Positions 5,776-39,938 of a DNA stretch of 64,000 nucleotides are shown piece after piece. The translations under genes were made by a program, and so were the position numbers. Source of the stretch: Verrucomicrobiota bacterium (GTDB lineage Bacteria > Verrucomicrobiota > Verrucomicrobiae > Limisphaerales > UBA11358); the NCBI GenBank assembly GCA_014860005.1, contig JACZKP010000156.1, forward strand, positions 17,880 through 81,879. Direction: 5' to 3'. Each line of letters begins with the position of its first letter. Position 1 is the first letter of the stretch. Below the pieces are notes generated by a model. It searched no databases. It was not told the origin of the DNA and was given only the letters and a program-made list of their open reading frames with translations.

Positions 5776-6966
5776 TCATTCTCTGAAAGTAGGCGGCGCA
5801 TGACTGGGGCTGGGTGGCTGAGCGGGGTTGTCCTGGCCTGCCGGAGCGATGTCGAGATACCGGTTGATTTCTGCTTCGCTAAAAGCCTTGCGCGAGATCT
5901 CCGCCTTGTTCCGCTCGCTGTCGGTGTGCGCCGACATCTCGGTGGGACGGTTGATAATGTAGGGCGTCATGAAAATGAGCAGTTCCTTCTTTTCATCGGC
6001 CGTCTTCTTGTGCTTGAACAGCAGACCCAGCAACGGGATATCACCCAAGATTGGCACTTTTTGCTCCGTCTTCGTCTTCACATTCTGCATCAACCCGCCG
6101 ATGACCACCGTCTGGCCATCGGGTACGACGACCACGGTGTCTGCCGAACGGATGTTGATGATCGGGGCGGAAGGGCTGCCGGCGTTATTTGTGCCGCCCG
6201 TGGCGAAACTGACGGTCGAATCGGAAACAGAGGAAATTTCCGGGGAAACAATCATTTCCACCATGCCGTCGGAGGTGATGAAGGGCGTCACCGTCAAAAT
6301 GATGCCGACACTCTGATAAGTTATGGCGTTGCGCTGATTGCCGAAGCTGTCGAAGGTCACCCCCGAAATGAGGGGCACCTGCTGACCGATGGTGATGGTC
6401 GCTTGCTGATTGTTGCGCGCGAGAATGGAGGGGCGGGAGAGAATCTCGGTCTTGCCCGCACTGGCCAGCGCGGCGATCGTGATGTCGAGGTCCTTGCCCA
6501 ACAAGGTGTAAATTCCGCCAGAAGTGGCGAGATCGAAGGCGGTGGTGGCGGAGTTTTGCAGCCCGTCCGGCGTATTGATTGCACTAACCTTGCTGCCGGA
6601 AATTCTGTGGCGGTAGGTGCCATCCACGCCAATATCTGTGCCTTTCAAATGGGTAGCCTCCATGAACACGCACTTGATGAGCACCTGCGGCGCCGGTCGG
6701 TCCAGTTCACGCACAACCTCCTGGATGTGGGCGGCGGTGTCCTCGTCAGACACGATGATCACGCTGCGCGTCTCCGGATCATAAGTGATGCGCGCCTGAC
6801 CGATGTCGGTGCTGCTCGGGTACGCGGTGGCGGCCCGCGCTGTCCCAGTACGAGCAGCCGCCCCCTGCTGGGCCAGTAGCCCGGCTGGCACCAGGAAACC
6901 GCCCGCCACCAGCCAGCAAACAAGTTGTTTGAGACTTTCGCTTCTGAAGCAATTGTTTTGTCGCAT
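5776..6966 (-). CDS. gspD: Secretin pore protein (C-terminal half of a split GspD/PilQ)
   Basis: 396 residues from the ATG at 6966, preferred over an upstream in-frame start at 7023 because AAGGGGAAATC precedes it and because the longer version would overlap the upstream gene. A signal peptide (QLVCWLVAGGFLVPAGLLAQ) is followed by a short N-domain-like module (about 45-90) and the secretin barrel, including VPLISG, the GQTVVIGGLMQ region and the VPILGDIPLLGLLF signature. It would form the outer-membrane gate. It lacks the multiple N domains of an ordinary GspD; these are on the separate upstream gene (6992-8779). Together the two proteins add up to one full secretin. Confidence 0.87.
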   Translation of the reverse strand: MRQNNCFRSESLKQLVCWLVAGGFLVPAGLLAQQGAAARTGTARAATAYPSSTDIGQARITYDPETRSVIIVSDEDTAAHIQEVVRELDRPAPQVLIKCVFMEATHLKGTDIGVDGTYRHRISGSKVSAINTPDGLQNSATTAFDLATSGGIYTLLGKDLDITIAALASAGKTEILSRPSILARNNQQATITIGQQVPLISGVTFDSFGNQRNAITYQSVGIILTVTPFITSDGMVEMIVSPEISSVSDSTVSFATGGTNNAGSPSAPIINIRSADTVVVVPDGQTVVIGGLMQNVKTKTEQKVPILGDIPLLGLLFKHKKTADEKKELLIFMTPYIINRPTEMSAHTDSERNKAEISRKAFSEAEINRYLDIAPAGQDNPAQPPSPSHAPPTFRE

Positions 6967-6991: not shown

Positions 6992-8779
6992 TCAACGGCC
7001 CGTCCGTGTATTGCCGGTACCAAAACCGGTATTGAGGCCGCCCGTCGTGTTACGGTTCTGGAGATTGTTTTGCTGCCGGGTGTTCAACTGGCTGCCGGTC
7101 TGGCGGGTCGTGTTACGGTTGCGATTGACGTTGCTGTTGTTATCCGTGGCAATGACACTCTGCAATTGCTCCACAACTTCCTGCGGATCCCGGTTCTCCA
7201 CCTTGATGACGGTGACCTTCATCTTGCGCGAAGGATCGGAATCCAATTGCTCCACGATGTCCGCAATCTGCGCCATCAAGTTCTGCGCGGCGCTCACAAT
7301 CACCGACCCGGTTCGCGGGTCGGGAACGGCCGTGACCTTTGTCTGCCGCACCTGGCGTGAGTTTTGATCGGTGGTCGTGCCACGATTGTTGGCCATACCG
7401 CCAAGCCCGAAGGGGAAACCGCGTCCCCCCTGGCCACGGTTGCTCTGCTGGGTGGTCGGGTCCGGAAACAGGCTGGTCAGGAGATCGGCCGTTTCCTGCG
7501 GGTCCGCATGGCGCAACCGGAACAACCGCAAATCCATTATGTCATCCACGTCCACATCCATCTGGCTCACCAATTCCACGACCAGAAGCATTTGTTCCTC
7601 CGAGGCGCTCACGACCAGCGAGTTGCTGCGGTCGTCGGCCACCGCGACCACACGCGGCGCAGCCACGCGACCTGCTTGACTGCTGGCGGCATTGTTGTCG
7701 CCACGCCGGGGATCGCCCCCCCCGGGGAATCCGCCGCCGAAGAAGCCGCGAAAGCCGCCCTGCTGCCCCCCGCGGTTGCTGCCCGTATCCGTTTGAAACA
7801 ACTGCGTCACGACCTGCGCCAGCGCGGTCGCATCCGAATACACCAGCGGAAACACCTTCAACGACGAGGAACTCACGCTGGCCGTGTCGAGCGCCTTCAC
7901 CAACTGCACCATGCGGCGAATGTTCGCGCGCGTGTCGGTGATGACGATGGCATTGGCCCCCTGGTTCGGCGTCATGGAAGTGCCGGTGGGCATCAATGGC
8001 TGGAGTGATTGGATCAACTGATTGGCTTCGACGTTGCTGATATAAACGATTTGCGTGACCATGTCCTTGGTAGGCGGGATGTTCGTGTAGCTGTTGCCGG
8101 GAACGCCCGCGATGATTTCGGTGTTGGTCGCATCCACGACATAAATATTCAACAGATTTCCCTCGACGGTGGCAGCGTACCCACTGGACATCAGCGACGT
8201 ATTCAGCAAGCGAATGGCTTCAGTGCGGTTCACGGGTTGGTTGGACCAGACCGTCACGGTGCCTTTAAGGTCCACCTTGGAGTTCGCACTGATGACAAAG
8301 CCGGCGGCGTCGCTCAGGTAATCCAGCACCAGGCTGAGGGGCGCGTTGCGGAAGTTCAGGCGCAAACCGCTCGCGCCATTCGCGGGTTGATTGGCGGAGG
8401 TAGCCGCCAGCAGCGAACCCAGCGAAAGCGCATTGCTCGAAGAACCCATGGTACCGCGCGTGCCCTGACCACGAATTGAGCGCGGTCCTCGCGAATCCTG
8501 GGTTTCAAGGTTTTCGCCCGGCGACAGGTTTGTGCCCTGCATCGCCTGCTGGGCTTCAAGCGCGGCCCGGACCAATTCGGCCACGGCTTCCTCGGAGAAG
8601 CCATTGGTGCCATTCCCGTTTTGCGCCAGGAGTTGTTGCACGATTTCCGCGGGTTCCGGAATGGGCGACTCTTGCTCGTCATTCCCCGGCGCCACGGGTG
8701 GTTGGGTTTGCGCAACGAGCGCGAAGCTCACGGTTATGGCCATGAGGGTAAGGATTGTTTTGAGCATGTGTGTTTTCAT
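6992..8779 (-). CDS. Secretin N-domain protein (N-terminal half of a split GspD)
   Basis: 595 residues with a signal peptide (TILTLMAITVSFALVAQ) and no secretin barrel. From about residue 140 an STN/N0-like module (LRLNFRNAPLSLVLDYLS) is followed by repeated KH-like secretin N1-N3 modules; their recognisable ends include NAIVITDTRANIRRMVQLV, RSNSLVVSASEEQMLLVVEL and GSVIVSAAQNLMAQIADIV. Gly/Asn/Gln-rich linkers separate them, and the C-terminus is an Asn/Arg/Thr-rich tail. It should form the periplasmic vestibule that docks the inner-membrane platform, working with the pore protein encoded next. The start overlaps the stop of the PilP/GspC-like gene (ATGA), implying coupled translation. Confidence 0.82.
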   Translation of the reverse strand: MKTHMLKTILTLMAITVSFALVAQTQPPVAPGNDEQESPIPEPAEIVQQLLAQNGNGTNGFSEEAVAELVRAALEAQQAMQGTNLSPGENLETQDSRGPRSIRGQGTRGTMGSSSNALSLGSLLAATSANQPANGASGLRLNFRNAPLSLVLDYLSDAAGFVISANSKVDLKGTVTVWSNQPVNRTEAIRLLNTSLMSSGYAATVEGNLLNIYVVDATNTEIIAGVPGNSYTNIPPTKDMVTQIVYISNVEANQLIQSLQPLMPTGTSMTPNQGANAIVITDTRANIRRMVQLVKALDTASVSSSSLKVFPLVYSDATALAQVVTQLFQTDTGSNRGGQQGGFRGFFGGGFPGGGDPRRGDNNAASSQAGRVAAPRVVAVADDRSNSLVVSASEEQMLLVVELVSQMDVDVDDIMDLRLFRLRHADPQETADLLTSLFPDPTTQQSNRGQGGRGFPFGLGGMANNRGTTTDQNSRQVRQTKVTAVPDPRTGSVIVSAAQNLMAQIADIVEQLDSDPSRKMKVTVIKVENRDPQEVVEQLQSVIATDNNSNVNRNRNTTRQTGSQLNTRQQNNLQNRNTTGGLNTGFGTGNTRTGR

Positions 8780-34326: not shown

Positions 34327-35832
34327 ATGCTGCTGACGCTAACGACAACGCACCGTCCAGCCACGGACCTTGGCTACTTGCTCCGCAAGAATCCGGGGCG
34401 TCCGCAGTCATTCGAGCTTTCGTTCGGCAAAGCGCATGTCTTTTATCCCGAAGCCACGTCTGAGCGATGCACGGTTGCATTGCTCGTTGAAGTTGATCCG
34501 GTCGGTCTGGTGCGAAATCGCCGTGGGCCATCGGGCGAAGGCGGTGCGCTTGAGCAATACGTCAATGATCGTCCTTACGCCGCCTCATCCTTCTTGAGCG
34601 TGGCTCTCGCCGATGTTTTCGGCAGTGCTCTCTCTGGCAAAAGCAAAGAGCGTCCTGAGCTTGCCGACACGCCGTTGCCGCTGTCGGTGACTTTCTCCGC
34701 GCTGCCATGCCGTGGCGGGGAGGAGTTTTTGCGGAAACTTTTTGAACCGCTGGGCTACACCTTGTCTGCGCGCCGGTTGCCGCTGGATGAGAAGTTTTCT
34801 GACTGGGGAGAAAGCTCCTATTTCCAGGTCGAATTGAATGCGCGGCTGCCGTTGCAGCAGCTTCTATCTCATCTGTACGTGCTCGTGCCGGTGCTGGACA
34901 ACGACAAGCACTATTGGGTGAGCGATGACGAGGTGAACAAACTCCTGCGCCATGGTGAAGGCTGGCTGGCAGCGCATCCTGAACGCGAAGCCATCACTCG
35001 CCGCTACCTCAAGCATCAGCGCAGCCTGGTGGACGATGCGCTGGCCCGGCTCGTGGGTGAAGACGAACCGAATCCCCATGCCGTGGCCGAAACGCGCGAC
35101 GGTGAGGAAGCGGCGCTGGAAGCCTCACTTTGTAGCAGCCGAGGTAACGAGGCTCAAACTTCTCCACAACCAGGTCAGAGCCTCCTCACGTCGGCTGCAA
35201 CGGAGGAAAGGCAAATGACGCTTAACGAACAGCGCCTCGGCTCGGTGCTGGCCGCGTTGAAAAGTACGAGCGCTGCTCGCGTCCTGGACCTGGGCTGTGG
35301 TGAAGGCCGCTTGCTTCAGGCTTTGCTCAAGGAAAAGCAGTTCACTGAAATTGTCGGCATGGACGTGTCGCACCGCGCGCTCGAAATCGCCCATGACCGT
35401 TTGCACTACGACCGCCTTCCGCCGGTTCAGAAGGAACGTCTGCGCTTTCTGCACGGCTCGCTTATTTACCGCGACCAGCGTCTCGCTGGCTTCGATGCCG
35501 CCGCCGTAGTGGAAGTGATTGAACACCTTGATGCCGCGCGACTGGCTGCGTTTGAGCGTGTTCTGTTCGAGTGCGCCAAACCAAAGCACATCGTCATCAC
35601 GACACCCAACCGCGAATACAACGTGAAATGGGAAACACTGCCCGCCGGCAAGTTTCGTCATCGCGACCATCGCTTCGAATGGACGCGCGTGGAGTTTCAG
35701 GAATGGGCCAAAGGTGTTGCCGAACGCTTCGGCTACAACGTGCGCTTCCTGCCCGTCGGCCCGGATGATCCGGCGGTTGGCTCACCAACGCAGATGGGCG
35801 TGTTTGAGCAGGCACAACGAAGCACAGCGTAA
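34327..35832 (+). CDS. hen1: Bacterial Hen1: RNA 3'-terminal ribose 2'-O-methyltransferase
   Basis: 501 residues. The N-terminal domain (about 1-240, MLLTLTTTHRPATDLGYLLR, YYxx-type strands) is the bacterial-specific half that activates the Pnkp ligase. The C-terminal methyltransferase (about 300-495) has the SAM loop VLDLGCGEGRLL and metal-binding EVIEH at 396-400 with HRDH at 445-448, the catalytic set of Hen1. It 2'-O-methylates the 3' end of cleaved RNA before ligation so that the repaired site resists re-cutting. The linker between halves (about 269-292) is encoded by a palindromic repeat. First gene of a three-gene operon with a HEPN protein and pnkp. Confidence 0.93.
   Translation: MLLTLTTTHRPATDLGYLLRKNPGRPQSFELSFGKAHVFYPEATSERCTVALLVEVDPVGLVRNRRGPSGEGGALEQYVNDRPYAASSFLSVALADVFGSALSGKSKERPELADTPLPLSVTFSALPCRGGEEFLRKLFEPLGYTLSARRLPLDEKFSDWGESSYFQVELNARLPLQQLLSHLYVLVPVLDNDKHYWVSDDEVNKLLRHGEGWLAAHPEREAITRRYLKHQRSLVDDALARLVGEDEPNPHAVAETRDGEEAALEASLCSSRGNEAQTSPQPGQSLLTSAATEERQMTLNEQRLGSVLAALKSTSAARVLDLGCGEGRLLQALLKEKQFTEIVGMDVSHRALEIAHDRLHYDRLPPVQKERLRFLHGSLIYRDQRLAGFDAAAVVEVIEHLDAARLAAFERVLFECAKPKHIVITTPNREYNVKWETLPAGKFRHRDHRFEWTRVEFQEWAKGVAERFGYNVRFLPVGPDDPAVGSPTQMGVFEQAQRSTA
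35132..35201 (+). repeat. Palindromic element, family A, copy 1 (inside hen1)
   Basis: 70 bp. Left arm GTAGCAGCCGAGGTAACGAG and right arm CCTCCTCACGTCGGCTGCAA form near-perfect inverted arms. It is inserted without breaking the frame and encodes about 24 residues of the linker between the two Hen1 domains. It is read in a different codon phase from the two copies in pnkp. Confidence 0.88.
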
Positions 35833-35835
35833 CCA

Positions 35836-37212
35836 ATGGAGCGTCATCAATCATTGCTCGAAAGTCATTGCAGGCGTCAGCTAAATGAGCCGCTTGAAAG
35901 CATTGAACTTACGAGGATGGGAATGCCTCCAGTTAAGTGGACTGGCAAATTAACGAGCAGACTTGATGGACAAATCGTCATAGTGCTTGAAACCAATACA
36001 AGATTGTGGGGTCTCCTTGACGATGGTGAATCCGGCGTCATCGTGCCCAACGAACGCTTGTTTTGTCTCGAGGCCCGCACGGCCAAAGGAATGCGCATGC
36101 AAGCAGTTGGCATTTACCCATCTGCTCCCCATATCAGCCTCAACTACGCCAAACTCCAGTTTGTGCCTCAAGAGATTACACTTTGGTCTGAAACAGCCTT
36201 GCCTGACTCGCCTTGGGTGACCGGTGCGATAACAAGATTTGACGAGAATGGCGCGTGCCGGAACTCCGAGCGCATCGCATGGCCGCCGGTGTTTGGCAGC
36301 GAAGCTACATGGCATGAGTGGTACTGTCTTCAGTTTGATCAGACGTCATTCGGCTTGTCCAAGAAGAGAGATGATTTTTGCCGGTTTGCCGTTTGGACCG
36401 ACACACAGCCAAGGCACGAGACATTGTTCGCTCAGGCGGAGGCATTTCTTTACGCGCTCGGTTTCCGAATCGGACAACGCGTCAATTGGTTAGCTTACAC
36501 TCGTGTGAAAAGCGGGCGGCTTGAGACAATTTTGGCGAAGCCAATTCCGCCACGTTCCGCCACACAACATTCACCGCTTCCTTCAGACATCGGAGATGAT
36601 GACGAGGAAACCTTGCTTCGTCGTGCTTACGAATTCTTTCTCCTGGAGAAGAACTACCCGGTCATTAACCAGCTTGGAATGTTTTGGGACGCCACAGATA
36701 ACTTTCTTCCCGTTCAGTCGCTCGTTGCTGCAACAGTGATTGAAGGTTTGGCCGACTTCATCAAACAAAGCACCCAAGATTCCGAAGCAGAAGAACGGTT
36801 TGCGCGCTTCAAGGATCAACTGAACGCGCATCTGATACGGAACGCCCGCGATCTGGTTGTCACAGATGGTGCGAAGAAGGATTGCGCTTTTCTCACGAAA
36901 ATCCGTAAAGTGGTTCAGTCAACACAACTGCTTTCGCTTTCAGAAAAAGTCAGGCTAGCTGCTCAGATAGCCAAGATTCCGTTGCAAGGAACTGAAGTAA
37001 GAGCGTGGAACAAGATGCGAAATCGCATTGCCCATGGCGATTTTTCACCTGGCCCGCTTTCAACAAGCCTGGTTCAGATTCAAAGCCAACAACTGGATTG
37101 CGCGGCGAATATCATCAACAAACTGGTTTTAGGTCTAATCGGCTATGGAGGGGTATTTACAGACTTCAGTTCTCCGGGTTGGCCAGCACGCTCTTTTGTG
37201 AGGACTGTATGA
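35836..37212 (+). CDS. HEPN-domain putative ribonuclease (ApeA-like) in the RNA repair operon
   Basis: 458 residues. The first 230 are beta-rich (KLTSRLDGQIVIVLETN, GVIVPNERLFCLEARTAKG) and recall the N-terminal domain of ApeA-type defence proteins. The C-terminal about 170 residues are helical and contain WNKMRNRIAHGDF, where Arg395 and His400 form the R-x4-H motif of HEPN ribonucleases. It starts 3 nt after hen1 and its stop overlaps the pnkp start as ATGA, so it is co-translated with both repair enzymes. It is not one of the classic Hen1-Pnkp operon genes. A non-nuclease HEPN role, such as RNA binding or scaffolding, is possible. No toxin or phage-specific sequence is seen. Confidence 0.7.
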   Translation: MERHQSLLESHCRRQLNEPLESIELTRMGMPPVKWTGKLTSRLDGQIVIVLETNTRLWGLLDDGESGVIVPNERLFCLEARTAKGMRMQAVGIYPSAPHISLNYAKLQFVPQEITLWSETALPDSPWVTGAITRFDENGACRNSERIAWPPVFGSEATWHEWYCLQFDQTSFGLSKKRDDFCRFAVWTDTQPRHETLFAQAEAFLYALGFRIGQRVNWLAYTRVKSGRLETILAKPIPPRSATQHSPLPSDIGDDDEETLLRRAYEFFLLEKNYPVINQLGMFWDATDNFLPVQSLVAATVIEGLADFIKQSTQDSEAEERFARFKDQLNAHLIRNARDLVVTDGAKKDCAFLTKIRKVVQSTQLLSLSEKVRLAAQIAKIPLQGTEVRAWNKMRNRIAHGDFSPGPLSTSLVQIQSQQLDCAANIINKLVLGLIGYGGVFTDFSSPGWPARSFVRTV

Positions 37213-39938
37213 CTTTCACCATCCCAGAACTTTCCTTCGTCGTGCTGATCGGCGTGTCCGGTTCGGGCAAGAGCACGTTTGCGCGGAAGCATTTCAAGCC
37301 AACGGAGATTTTGTCCTCCGATGCGTGTCGCGGGCTGGTGTCGGACGATGAGAACAGCCAAGCGGCGACGAAAGACGCTTTTGAACTGCTTCACTTCATC
37401 GCTCGCAAGCGGCTCGCGGCGGGAAAGCTGACGGTGGTGGACGCGACGAACGTGCAGCCGGAATCGCGCAAGCCGCTCGTGGGGATCGCCCGCGAGTTCC
37501 ATTGTCTGCCGGTGGCCATCGTGCTCGATGTGCCGGAGCGCGTGGCGCATGACCGCAACAAGATGCGCCCCGACCGTGATTTCGGCCCTCATGTCATTCG
37601 CCAGCAATCGCAACAGTTGCACCGCTCATTGCGTGGGCTGGAACGCGAGGGATTCCGCCACGTCCATGTCCTCAAGTCATTGGAGGAAATCGAAGCCGCC
37701 GTCATCGAGCGTCAGCCGTTGTGGAATAATTTGAAGCACGAGCACGGGCCGTTCGACATCATCGGCGATGTGCATGGGTGTTTCGATGAGCTTGTGGAGT
37801 TGCTGGGAAAGCTGGGATACGTAGCCGCCGAGGTAACGAGGCGGACGGGGAGCGAGGAATTTGTCAAAGCGGAGGAATCTACCTCCTCACGTCGGTGGCT
37901 ACATCCAGATGGCCGCAAGCTGGTGTTCGTCGGCGACTTGGTGGATCGCGGGCCGAAAGTTCCGCAAGTGCTCAAGCTGGTGATGAATACCGGGGCCAGC
38001 GGCGCGGCGTTGTGTGTGCCGGGCAACCATGACGTGAAGCTAATGCGCAAATTGCGCGGGCGTGACGTTCAGATCACGCATGGTCTCGCGGAATCTTTGG
38101 CGCAACTCGCCGACGAGCCGGAGGATTTCCGCAAACGCGTTGCGGAATTCATTGATGACCTGGTGAGTCATTACGTTCTCGACGACGGCAAACTGGTCGT
38201 TGCCCACGCGGGCATGAAGGAATCCATGCAAGGGCGCGGCTCCGGTGCGGTGCGCGAGTTCGCTTTGTTTGGCGAAACGACCGGTGAGACGGATGAGTTT
38301 GGTCTGCCCGTGCGCTACAACTGGGCTGCCGAATATCGCGGCGCGGCGACGGTCGTGTATGGACACACGCCTGTGCCTGAACCGGAGTGGTTGAACCGCA
38401 CCATCAACATTGATACCGGCTGCGTCTTCGGCGGGAAACTCACGGCGCTGCGTTATCCAGAGAAGGAACTCGTTTCGGTCGCGGCTCGACAGGTTTACGC
38501 GACGCCGGCGAAACCATTCCCGGTAGCAGCCGAGGTAACGAGGCTCATTTCTAACGCTTCAGGAGATGAAAGTCAGAGCCTCCTCACGTCGGCTGCTACG
38601 GGATTGACGGCACAGCAGCAGAACGACGATTTGCTCGACCTCGCCGACGTGACGGGCAAGCGCATCGTCAGCACGCGATTGCGTGGCAACGTGACTATCC
38701 GCGAGGAGAACTCCATCGCCGCGCTGGAAGTGATGAGCCGTTTCGCCGCGAATCCCAAGTGGCTGATTTATCTTCCGCCCACGATGTCGCCGAGTGAGAC
38801 AAGTCAAGCGCCCGGATTACTGGAGCATCCGGCGGAAGCATTCGCTTACTTTCGCCATGCCGGTGTGCCGCACGTTGTCTGCGAGGAAAAACACATGGGT
38901 TCGCGCGCCGTGGTGATTATCTGTCGCGACGAAGATGCTGCACGAAAAACTTTCGGCGTGACTGGCGAAGGCATCGGCATTTGCTACACACGCACGGGTC
39001 GAAGGTTTTTCGACAATACGACTTTGGAAGTGGAATTCCTTGAGCGCGTCCGTGCCGCCGCTACCGCCGCCGGGTTTTGGGACGAGTTCAAAACCGACTG
39101 GCTCTGCCTCGACTGCGAGTTGATGCCGTGGTCAGCGAAGGCACAAGAGCTGGTGAAGCAGCAATACGCCGCCGTCGGTGCATCCGCACAGGCGACGCTT
39201 GCGGCTGAAGTCGCCGTGCTGAAACAGACCGCCGGGCGCGGACTTGATGTCAATGAGTTACTCGCGCATACAACCGCGCGCCGCCAGATGGTGAGCGACT
39301 ACATCGAAGTTTATCGCCGCTACTGCTGGCCGGTGAACTCGGTCAACGATCTGAAGCTCGCGCCGTTTCACCTGCTCGCCACGGAAGGAAAAGTTCATAC
39401 GGACAAACCGCATGACTGGCACATGCAAACTTTGGCTCGCCTGGAAGATGGAGCGCCGCTCTCCGAGCCGGCGCGTGACGGTGGGATTGCGAATCGCGCC
39501 GGGTCGGAGACCGGCGCTCCGGCAAAGAGCATTCTCATCGCAACGCCGTTCCGTATGATTGACGTGACCAATCCCGAAAGTGAAGCCGAAGGCATTCGTT
39601 GGTGGGAGGAACTGACCGGGCGCGGCGGCGAAGGCATGGTTGTGAAGCCGTTGGAGTTCATCGCCAAGAGCCGGCGTGGACTCGTGCAACCGGCGGTGAA
39701 GTGTCGTGGCCGTGAATATCTCCGCATCATCTACGGCCCGGAATACACCGCGGCAGAAAATCTCGAACGCCTCCGGGCGCGCGGCCTTTCTACAAAACGG
39801 TCGCTGGCGCTGCGTGAATTTGCTCTCGGCATCGAATCACTCGAAAGGTTTGTTCGGAAAGAGCCCTTGCGTCGCGTGCATGAAGCGGTCTTTGGCGTGC
39901 TGGCGTTGGAAAGCGAACCCGTGGATCCACGGCTATAA
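37209..39938 (+). CDS. pnkp: Polynucleotide kinase-phosphatase-ligase Pnkp (RNA repair)
   Basis: 909 residues from the ATG at 37209, inside the preceding stop (ATGA). Kinase: P-loop GVSGSGKST at 15-23. Phosphatase: DIIGDVHGC at 183-191, GDLVDRG at 242-248 and GNHD at 275-278. Ligase: adenylated Lys561 in EEKHMGSRA, followed by typical nucleotidyltransferase blocks. It heals and seals broken RNA together with Hen1. It is longer than the about 870 residues of the Clostridium protein because three palindromic repeats are inserted in frame (about 205-231, 439-464 and 748-771), which add about 77 residues in loops or linkers. None of them touches a catalytic motif. Confidence 0.95.
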   Translation: MTFTIPELSFVVLIGVSGSGKSTFARKHFKPTEILSSDACRGLVSDDENSQAATKDAFELLHFIARKRLAAGKLTVVDATNVQPESRKPLVGIAREFHCLPVAIVLDVPERVAHDRNKMRPDRDFGPHVIRQQSQQLHRSLRGLEREGFRHVHVLKSLEEIEAAVIERQPLWNNLKHEHGPFDIIGDVHGCFDELVELLGKLGYVAAEVTRRTGSEEFVKAEESTSSRRWLHPDGRKLVFVGDLVDRGPKVPQVLKLVMNTGASGAALCVPGNHDVKLMRKLRGRDVQITHGLAESLAQLADEPEDFRKRVAEFIDDLVSHYVLDDGKLVVAHAGMKESMQGRGSGAVREFALFGETTGETDEFGLPVRYNWAAEYRGAATVVYGHTPVPEPEWLNRTINIDTGCVFGGKLTALRYPEKELVSVAARQVYATPAKPFPVAAEVTRLISNASGDESQSLLTSAATGLTAQQQNDDLLDLADVTGKRIVSTRLRGNVTIREENSIAALEVMSRFAANPKWLIYLPPTMSPSETSQAPGLLEHPAEAFAYFRHAGVPHVVCEEKHMGSRAVVIICRDEDAARKTFGVTGEGIGICYTRTGRRFFDNTTLEVEFLERVRAAATAAGFWDEFKTDWLCLDCELMPWSAKAQELVKQQYAAVGASAQATLAAEVAVLKQTAGRGLDVNELLAHTTARRQMVSDYIEVYRRYCWPVNSVNDLKLAPFHLLATEGKVHTDKPHDWHMQTLARLEDGAPLSEPARDGGIANRAGSETGAPAKSILIATPFRMIDVTNPESEAEGIRWWEELTGRGGEGMVVKPLEFIAKSRRGLVQPAVKCRGREYLRIIYGPEYTAAENLERLRARGLSTKRSLALREFALGIESLERFVRKEPLRRVHEAVFGVLALESEPVDPRL
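37821..37902 (+). repeat. Palindromic element, family A, copy 2 (inside pnkp)
   Basis: 82 bp, bounded by GTAGCCGCCGAGGTAACGAG and CCTCCTCACGTCGGTGGCTA. It encodes residues 205-231, a loop between the first two metal-binding motifs of the phosphatase domain. Confidence 0.88.
38523..38599 (+). repeat. Palindromic element, family A, copy 3 (inside pnkp)
   Basis: 77 bp, bounded by GTAGCAGCCGAGGTAACGAG and CCTCCTCACGTCGGCTGCTA. It encodes residues 439-464, the linker between the phosphatase and ligase domains. Same orientation and codon phase as copy 2. Confidence 0.9.
39450..39520 (+). repeat. Palindromic element, family B, copy 1 (inside pnkp)
   Basis: 71 bp. Arms of 26 bases at 39450-39475 and 39495-39520 (GGAGCGCCG... 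against ...CGGCGCTCC) match as reverse complements with two mismatches. It encodes residues 748-771 in a loop of the ligase domain. A second copy lies between genes at 61192-61264. Confidence 0.85.

What the first reader, a model, noticed from the sequence alone, without database searches (positions are those of the whole stretch)
34327..39938. HEPN-type putative ribonuclease embedded between hen1 and pnkp
The bacterial RNA repair pair Hen1-Pnkp is normally two genes. Here a 458-residue protein with an R-x4-H motif (Arg395, His400) in a C-terminal HEPN-like domain and an ApeA-like beta-rich N-terminus is placed between them, 3 nt after hen1 and overlapping pnkp as ATGA. A putative RNA-cutting, defence-type nuclease encoded with the enzymes that methylate and reseal cut RNA suggests a self-limiting system: RNA is cut on infection or stress and later repaired and protected. 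Alternatively the HEPN protein only delivers RNA to the repair complex.
Basis: partly seen in the sequence, partly recalled or inferred. Interest (0 to 1): 0.88.

Follow-up and report, generated by a model that had tools for sequence, protein, structure and literature searches.

The report
RNA-cutting gene inside RNA-repair operon
A bacterial gene that looks like an RNA-cutting defence enzyme sits between the two genes whose enzymes mend and protect cut RNA, which may be a self-repairing defence or simply a recently acquired passenger.

The parts
34327..35832 (+). hen1: 3'-terminal RNA ribose 2'-O-methyltransferase with N-terminal Hen1_L domain, 501 aa
   Evidence: TIGR04074 722.5 bits (cut-off 340), Pfam Hen1_L 4.9e-116; DLGCGEG 321-327 and E..EH 396-400 present (roles recalled)
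35836..37212 (+). orfX: putative HEPN endoribonuclease, 458 aa, beta-rich N-terminal part plus helical C-terminal HEPN-like domain; low GC (50.3%, GC3 51.0%)
   Evidence: ORF; relatives P0002-P0010, L116, L117, L118, L124; model pLDDT 79, pTM 0.77; GC
35836..36579 (+). orfX residues 1-248: beta-rich N-terminal part, possible sensor or RNA-binding region, fold not identified
36580..37209 (+). orfX residues 249-458: HEPN-like helical domain
36742..36744 (+). codon of Glu303, invariant acidic residue N-terminal to the motif, in predicted helix 291-311
   Evidence: 14 of 14 rows; an acidic helix-2 residue is described for HEPN in PMC3710099, equivalence not tested
37018..37035 (+). codons of R395-N-R-I-A-H400, the putative HEPN catalytic motif Rx4H
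   Evidence: R and H invariant in 14 of 14 rows; residue after R polar in 13 of 14
37209..37212 (+). ATGA overlap of orfX stop and pnkp start
   Evidence: sequence
37209..39938 (+). pnkp: polynucleotide kinase-phosphatase-ligase, 909 aa
   Evidence: TIGR04075 1422.5 bits (cut-off 750); Pfam PNKP_ligase 1.4e-181, AAA_33, Metallophos; GVSGSGKS, GDVHG, GDLVDRG, GNHD, EKHMGSR present (roles recalled)

Best explanation
OrfX is a catalytically competent HEPN endoribonuclease of an uncharacterised defence-type family: a beta-rich N-terminal sensor or regulatory part plus a C-terminal HEPN domain. It entered a hen1-pnkp RNA-repair operon as cargo, using a slot between the two genes that other lineages fill with different genes. 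There it is transcribed and translationally coupled with them. When activated (infection or damage; trigger unknown) it would cut host or invader RNA, leaving 2',3'-cyclic phosphate and 5'-OH ends. Pnkp would heal and reseal these ends and Hen1 would 2'-O-methylate the repaired junction, so that the mended RNA resists a second cut and the cell can recover. Supported: gene order, identities of Hen1 and Pnkp, motif invariance, HEPN-like fold (moderate strength), foreign composition, variable slot. Inferred: RNase activity, its chemistry here, co-transcription, the trigger and target, and above all that the cuts are repaired by the neighbours.
Confidence: 0.41

Rival explanations
1. Passive cargo: orfX is an active HEPN defence RNase that landed in a variable slot of the hen1-pnkp operon and works on its own; the neighbourhood only gives it a promoter.
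For: No orfX in 75 other hen1-pnkp pairs; relatives with other neighbours; foreign GC; the slot takes HEAT, AAA_14-DUF4143, DUF5677 and other genes in other lineages; relatives L001 and L002 show partial copies of the pnkp start around inserted genes.
Against: Precise in-operon placement with translational coupling, and the known match between metal-independent RNase products and Pnkp-Hen1 substrates, would be a coincidence; the two largest other cargo groups (RlaP in 9 and Thg1 in 5 of the 75 loci, one locus with both) are themselves RNA-repair-type enzymes.
Confidence: 0.37
2. RNA-binding adaptor: the HEPN domain is not a nuclease here but brings damaged RNA to Hen1-Pnkp.
For: HEPN domains without the motif are thought to bind RNA (PMC3710099, passages).
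Against: R395, H400 and E303 are invariant in 14 of 14 members, including ones without hen1-pnkp nearby; HEPNs regarded as inactive lack the motif.
Confidence: 0.08
3. RNA maturation: OrfX makes defined 3' ends that Hen1 then methylates, stabilising specific small RNAs rather than acting in defence.
For: Adjacency to a 3'-terminal ribose methyltransferase.
Against: Sparse distribution (nine relatives besides the window's own protein in searches of 5.8 billion sequences that scored about 8000 candidates each) and defence-type neighbours of relatives do not fit a housekeeping processing role.
Confidence: 0.05
4. Not HEPN: an unrelated helical domain with a coincidental Rx4H.
Against: Exact Rx4H invariance, with an invariant Glu, at identities under 20%, and HEPN-type proteins filling ranks 1-8.
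Confidence: 0.09

Closest known systems
Bacterial Pnkp-Hen1 RNA repair operon (TIGR04074 + TIGR04075)
   Same: Both enzymes present, motifs intact, hen1 upstream of pnkp as in the 75 sampled pairs
   Different: A third, HEPN-type gene lies between them; in other loci the slot is empty or holds RlaP, Thg1 or other genes
HEPN toxins HepT / HEPN of MNT-HEPN toxin-antitoxin pairs (6m6w, 5yep, 8xeh, 7ae6)
   Same: Helical domain arrangement; Rx4H motif (recalled for these structures)
   Different: OrfX has an extra 248-residue beta-rich N-terminal part and no nucleotidyltransferase antitoxin gene beside it
Single-protein abortive-infection HEPN proteins (ApeA, AbiJ, AbiF/AbiD types; ApeA architecture recalled)
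   Same: N-terminal part plus C-terminal HEPN, apparently without a dedicated antitoxin
   Different: No sequence match to such a profile in Pfam or PADLOC; ApeA likeness unsupported
PrrC anticodon nuclease versus phage T4 Pnkp/Rnl1 (PrrC side recalled; T4 repair in PMC4411300, passages)
   Same: A HEPN-type RNA cut answered by end-healing and ligation
   Different: There repair is the phage's counter-defence; here cutter and mender would be in one host operon
CoCoNuT systems with HEPN effectors and RtcR-like regulators (PMC11090510, passages)
   Same: Proposed link of HEPN cutting with an RNA-repair circuit
   Different: McrBC-type GTPase system and RtcAB, no Hen1/Pnkp in the passages seen

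Membership tests
HEPN superfamily | Conserved Rx4-6H motif | tested here: met
   R395 and H400 invariant in 14 of 14 rows of A6; the other R-x4-H of orfX (240-245) is not
HEPN superfamily | Polar residue (mostly N, D, H) directly after the Arg | tested here: met
   N, S, D or H in 13 of 14 rows, Pro in L118; rule from PMC3710099
[quoted passage not shown]
   predicted helix 137-152 of the C-terminal model ends with R147...H152 (orfX 395-400), then loop, then helix 162-186; a prediction, and helix numbering against a solved HEPN was not checked residue by residue
HEPN superfamily | Acidic residue in helix 2, typically Ex3[KR] | tested here: inconclusive
   E303 invariant in 14 of 14, Ex3[KR] in 6 of 14 and not in orfX itself (EGLAD); several helices lie between it and the motif helix, so equivalence to HEPN helix 2 is not shown
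HEPN superfamily | HEPN fold by structure comparison | tested here: inconclusive
HEPN superfamily | Match to a HEPN profile over its curated cut-off | tested here: not met
   HEPN_RiboL-PSP E 0.25, 11.7 bits against 28.4; best relative 21.5 bits. The superfamily is diverse, so this lowers but does not exclude membership
HEPN superfamily | Metal-independent endoribonuclease activity | not testable with these tools
   needs biochemistry
ApeA | Match to ApeA N-terminal or HEPN profiles | tested here: inconclusive
   no such match in Pfam or PADLOC for orfX (E up to 5) or for any of 10 members; presence of ApeA models in these libraries is recalled, not checked
MNT-HEPN toxin-antitoxin | Adjacent MNT nucleotidyltransferase antitoxin gene | tested here: not met
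   immediate neighbours are hen1 and pnkp
Pnkp-Hen1 RNA repair operon | hen1 and pnkp equivalogs together on one strand | tested here: met
   TIGR04074 722 bits, TIGR04075 1422 bits, both + strand
Pnkp-Hen1 RNA repair operon | Catalytic motifs of both enzymes present | tested here: met
   motif list; assignment of roles recalled

The most novel reading that the evidence does not exclude
A self-immunising RNA restriction system: one operon encodes the RNase, the end-healing ligase and the methyltransferase that blocks re-cutting. Each self RNA is then cut at most once, healed and 2'-O-methylated at the cut site, so the defence pauses the cell and is cleared without a protein antitoxin. This would be an RNA-level counterpart of restriction-modification, assembled by dropping a HEPN cassette into a repair operon.
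Probability: 0.25. Interest if true: 0.88.

Novelty: new variant of a known kind. Interest (0 to 1): 0.6.

Why it matters
The in vivo RNA substrates of Pnkp-Hen1 are described as unknown (PMC4411300, passages). An RNase encoded inside the operon is a direct candidate source and makes the question testable with three genes. It would also suggest that a toxin can be tamed by repair and methylation of its target instead of by an antitoxin. Even if orfX is only cargo, the hen1-pnkp junction is shown here as a slot with varying content, and the invariant motif marks out a HEPN-like family, unnamed in the libraries searched, that also occurs beside restriction-like and reverse-transcriptase genes.

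Tried and rejected
ApeA: no profile match. Known defence, phage and NCBI families for orfX: none; a single relative hits a CARF_HEPN model at 0.0048. Solved relatives by sequence: none for orfX; the family profile hits only 9x2o at E 0.44. Plasmid and phage records by tblastn: no match. Genome and viral contigs scanned with A2: 63 and 23 pattern hits, none a relative. Foldseek, whole protein in PDB and viral libraries and C-terminal domain in PDB: no match below E 1e-3. The N-terminal part gives weak PilZ/Hcp/tail-tube-like matches, not interpreted.

Rows dropped: weak tblastn hits of family members in L051 (36 residues, E 0.031) and L036 (85 residues, E 0.015) lie outside the hen1-pnkp gap; a 41-residue match in G346, a 94-residue match with three stops in G478 and a 72-residue match at a contig edge in G657 were not counted as relatives. 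Genome searches with 0 matches had no positive control and are not used as proof of absence. E-values for G516 and G600 are inflated because both rows were in the query alignment.

Co-location of relatives with hen1: longest-contig lengths of the best 120 of 8000 Hen1 hits (some rows give none) were compared by eye with those of the nine orfX relatives; none agreed. Weak evidence, since only 120 were shown. The P0012 cluster may contain the window's own Hen1, so nothing is said about orfX there.

Literature: searches. No listed title or shown start of an abstract describes a HEPN gene within a hen1-pnkp operon. The lists were cut (for example 20 of 28, 20 of 64, 12 of 56), and passages were read in only five papers (PMC3710099, PMC4411300, PMC11090510, PMC11208441, PMC13405049). 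Burroughs and Aravind 2016 (doi 10.1093/nar/gkw722, recalled as a key survey of RNA-repair operons) is not held. The arrangement may therefore be in print.

Full report
OBSERVATION. Three same-strand genes lie at 34327-39938: hen1 (501 aa), orfX (458 aa) and pnkp (909 aa from its ATG at 37209). Three bases separate hen1 and orfX; orfX and pnkp overlap as ATGA. Hen1 and Pnkp are clear equivalogs (722 and 1422 bits against cut-offs 340 and 750) and carry the expected motifs (roles recalled). The promoter/terminator scan found no + strand promoter match between hen1 and pnkp and one weak 5-pair hairpin inside orfX; overall numbers were no higher than in shuffled sequence. This suits one transcript but is not proof.

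ORFX FAMILY. orfX matches no family above cut-off in Pfam, NCBIfam or PADLOC, and no PDB sequence. Among 5.8 billion proteins, two searches (each scoring about 8000 candidates) give ten proteins: P0001, which is the window's own, and nine relatives. Whole-genome searches added members with readable context: G674 (29% identity, full length, E 3.3e-45), G600 and G516 (E 1e-4 and 0.007; local tblastn E 1e-8 and 3e-5), all from a draw of 293 genomes of the order of G002 in which 4 matched, and G667 (E 2.4e-30 with profile A5) from 49 genomes of the family of G674 in which 3 matched, G674 itself among them. A draw of 387 genomes of the phylum with A2 gave only one 41-residue match, and draws of 384 (class) and 235 (order) gave no new member.

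SLOT BETWEEN hen1 AND pnkp. From the gap stretches, including those of the five loci without hen1, 71 ORFs of 90 aa or more were taken; 57 of the 71 were scanned together in Pfam (RlaP 13, Thg1C 5, Thg1 4, AAA_33 3, Zeta_toxin 3, HEAT_2 2). BLAST clusters give RlaP-like ORFs in 10 loci (9 of the 75), Thg1-like in 5 and an AAA_33 kinase-like group in 3 (some members by BLAST only, and the L054 Thg1-like ORF is a 93-aa piece). Thus 13 of the 33 gaps hold RlaP or Thg1. Other cargo: a HEAT protein and an AAA_14-DUF4143 ATPase (L001); two RlaP genes plus a 407-aa reverse-strand ORF and a 152-aa ORF (L002); a 506-aa protein with DUF5677 starting two bases after hen1 (L045). In several other gaps only short ORFs were found (for example L004, L005, L007), and in L032 and L049 none. 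orfX-family members: none by profile; by tblastn only two short weak hits outside the gap. In Verrucomicrobiota, Hen1 over cut-off occurs in 7 of 387 genomes. One of these loci is L002 again; the other six (L082-L087) are not among the 80 and show no orfX (L086 ends before pnkp, so five show the junction). So 'normally two genes' is only partly right, and orfX is a rare occupant.

SIGNS OF INSERTION. orfX has GC 0.503 and GC3 0.510 against 0.592/0.649 (hen1) and 0.597/0.691 (pnkp), below each of 34 mechanically chosen reference ORFs of 200 aa or more in the window (lowest 0.517/0.546); orfX itself was not in that set because it overlaps the longer pnkp frame. In L001 about 95 nt of the pnkp start occur twice (83%) around the ATPase gene, in L002 three times (84-88%) around two ORFs. 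In a scan of 81 sequences (80 loci and the window) no other such copy was found; seven loci show a second, shorter match of 17-24 residues around the P-loop. This suggests, but does not prove, that genes enter this junction together with a pnkp start; the window itself shows no such copy.

CONTEXT OF RELATIVES. L116 (G674): the homologue overlaps by ATGA a 210-aa ORF with a weak Mrr_cat match (E 0.0067). L124 (G667): the homologue follows, with ATGA overlap, an N6_N4_Mtase plus Mrr_cat gene. L117 (G600): it lies after a gene read as a type I HsdS by eye (no profile run on it) and before a reverse transcriptase of type RT_UG19 (4.4e-127), with a PDC-S13 gene two genes upstream. L118 (G516): no defence neighbour recognised by eye; its neighbours were not run against profiles. 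hen1 or pnkp were not found in any of these stretches of 12-18 kb (tblastn). The contexts of P0002-P0010 were not readable. The family thus looks like defence cargo that can do without Hen1-Pnkp, perhaps held in check by its own N-terminal part (inference).

MECHANISM. [quoted passage not shown] Pnkp-Hen1 repairs ribotoxin-cut RNA, and Hen1 methylates the 2'-OH responsible for cleavage so that the repaired RNA resists the same ribotoxin (PMC4411300). An RNase in the same operon is thus chemically matched to its neighbours. Shown here: order, Hen1/Pnkp identities, conservation, composition, slot. Inferred: activity, target, trigger, repair coupling. I give active HEPN about 0.85, acquisition as cargo about 0.8, functional coupling about 0.4.

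NOVELTY. HEPN RNases and Hen1-Pnkp operons are known kinds, and Pfam already names RlaP as an RNA-repair family; the HEPN gene inside hen1-pnkp is a new variant as far as the listings show. PMC3710099 has no occurrence of Hen1, Pnkp or RNA repair in its main text, and the one occurrence of HEPN in PMC4411300 is in its reference list. The survey I recall as most relevant could not be read.

Noticed in passing
window 35132-35203, 38523-38601 and 37821-37842: A 70-80 nt palindromic element with core GTAGCAGCCGAGGTAACGAGGC lies within the open frames of hen1 and pnkp (two long copies, one short match). It folds strongly as RNA (z -6.5 and -6.3), its core occurs nowhere else in the window, and it has many copies in some Verrucomicrobiota (122 matches in G001, 24 in G002, 11 in G674, 0 in four of ten genomes; reversed-pattern control 0). 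A REP- or RPE-like element that tolerates insertion into coding sequence.
   Followed up: partly
L001 5996-6090 / 7329-7421; L002 4684-4765 / 6000-6095 / 6812-6907: Partial copies of the first 75-95 nt of pnkp flank inserted genes between hen1 and pnkp (83-88% identity): the pnkp 5' end may be a recurrent integration or recombination point.
   Followed up: partly
L045 1521-3041: A different large protein (506 aa, DUF5677 in its C-terminal part) starts two bases after hen1 in a Planctomycetota genome; it may be another toxin-like occupant of the same slot.
   Followed up: no
L117 5880-8057 and 8003-9373 (minus strand): A reverse transcriptase close to RT_UG19 (PADLOC 4.4e-127) directly follows an orfX-family gene in what looks like a type I restriction locus; the two may form a pair.
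   Followed up: no
L124 6025-8978: A DNA methylase with an Mrr_cat-like C-terminus overlaps by ATGA a 480-aa orfX-family protein: a candidate two-gene modification plus HEPN system.
   Followed up: no
L118 8882: The palindromic core (up to 3 mismatches) also lies about 30 nt after the end of the orfX-family gene of G516; probably chance given its copy number in such genomes.
   Followed up: no
L074 5986-7023: A separate 345-aa metallophosphatase gene precedes pnkp between hen1 and pnkp.
   Followed up: no
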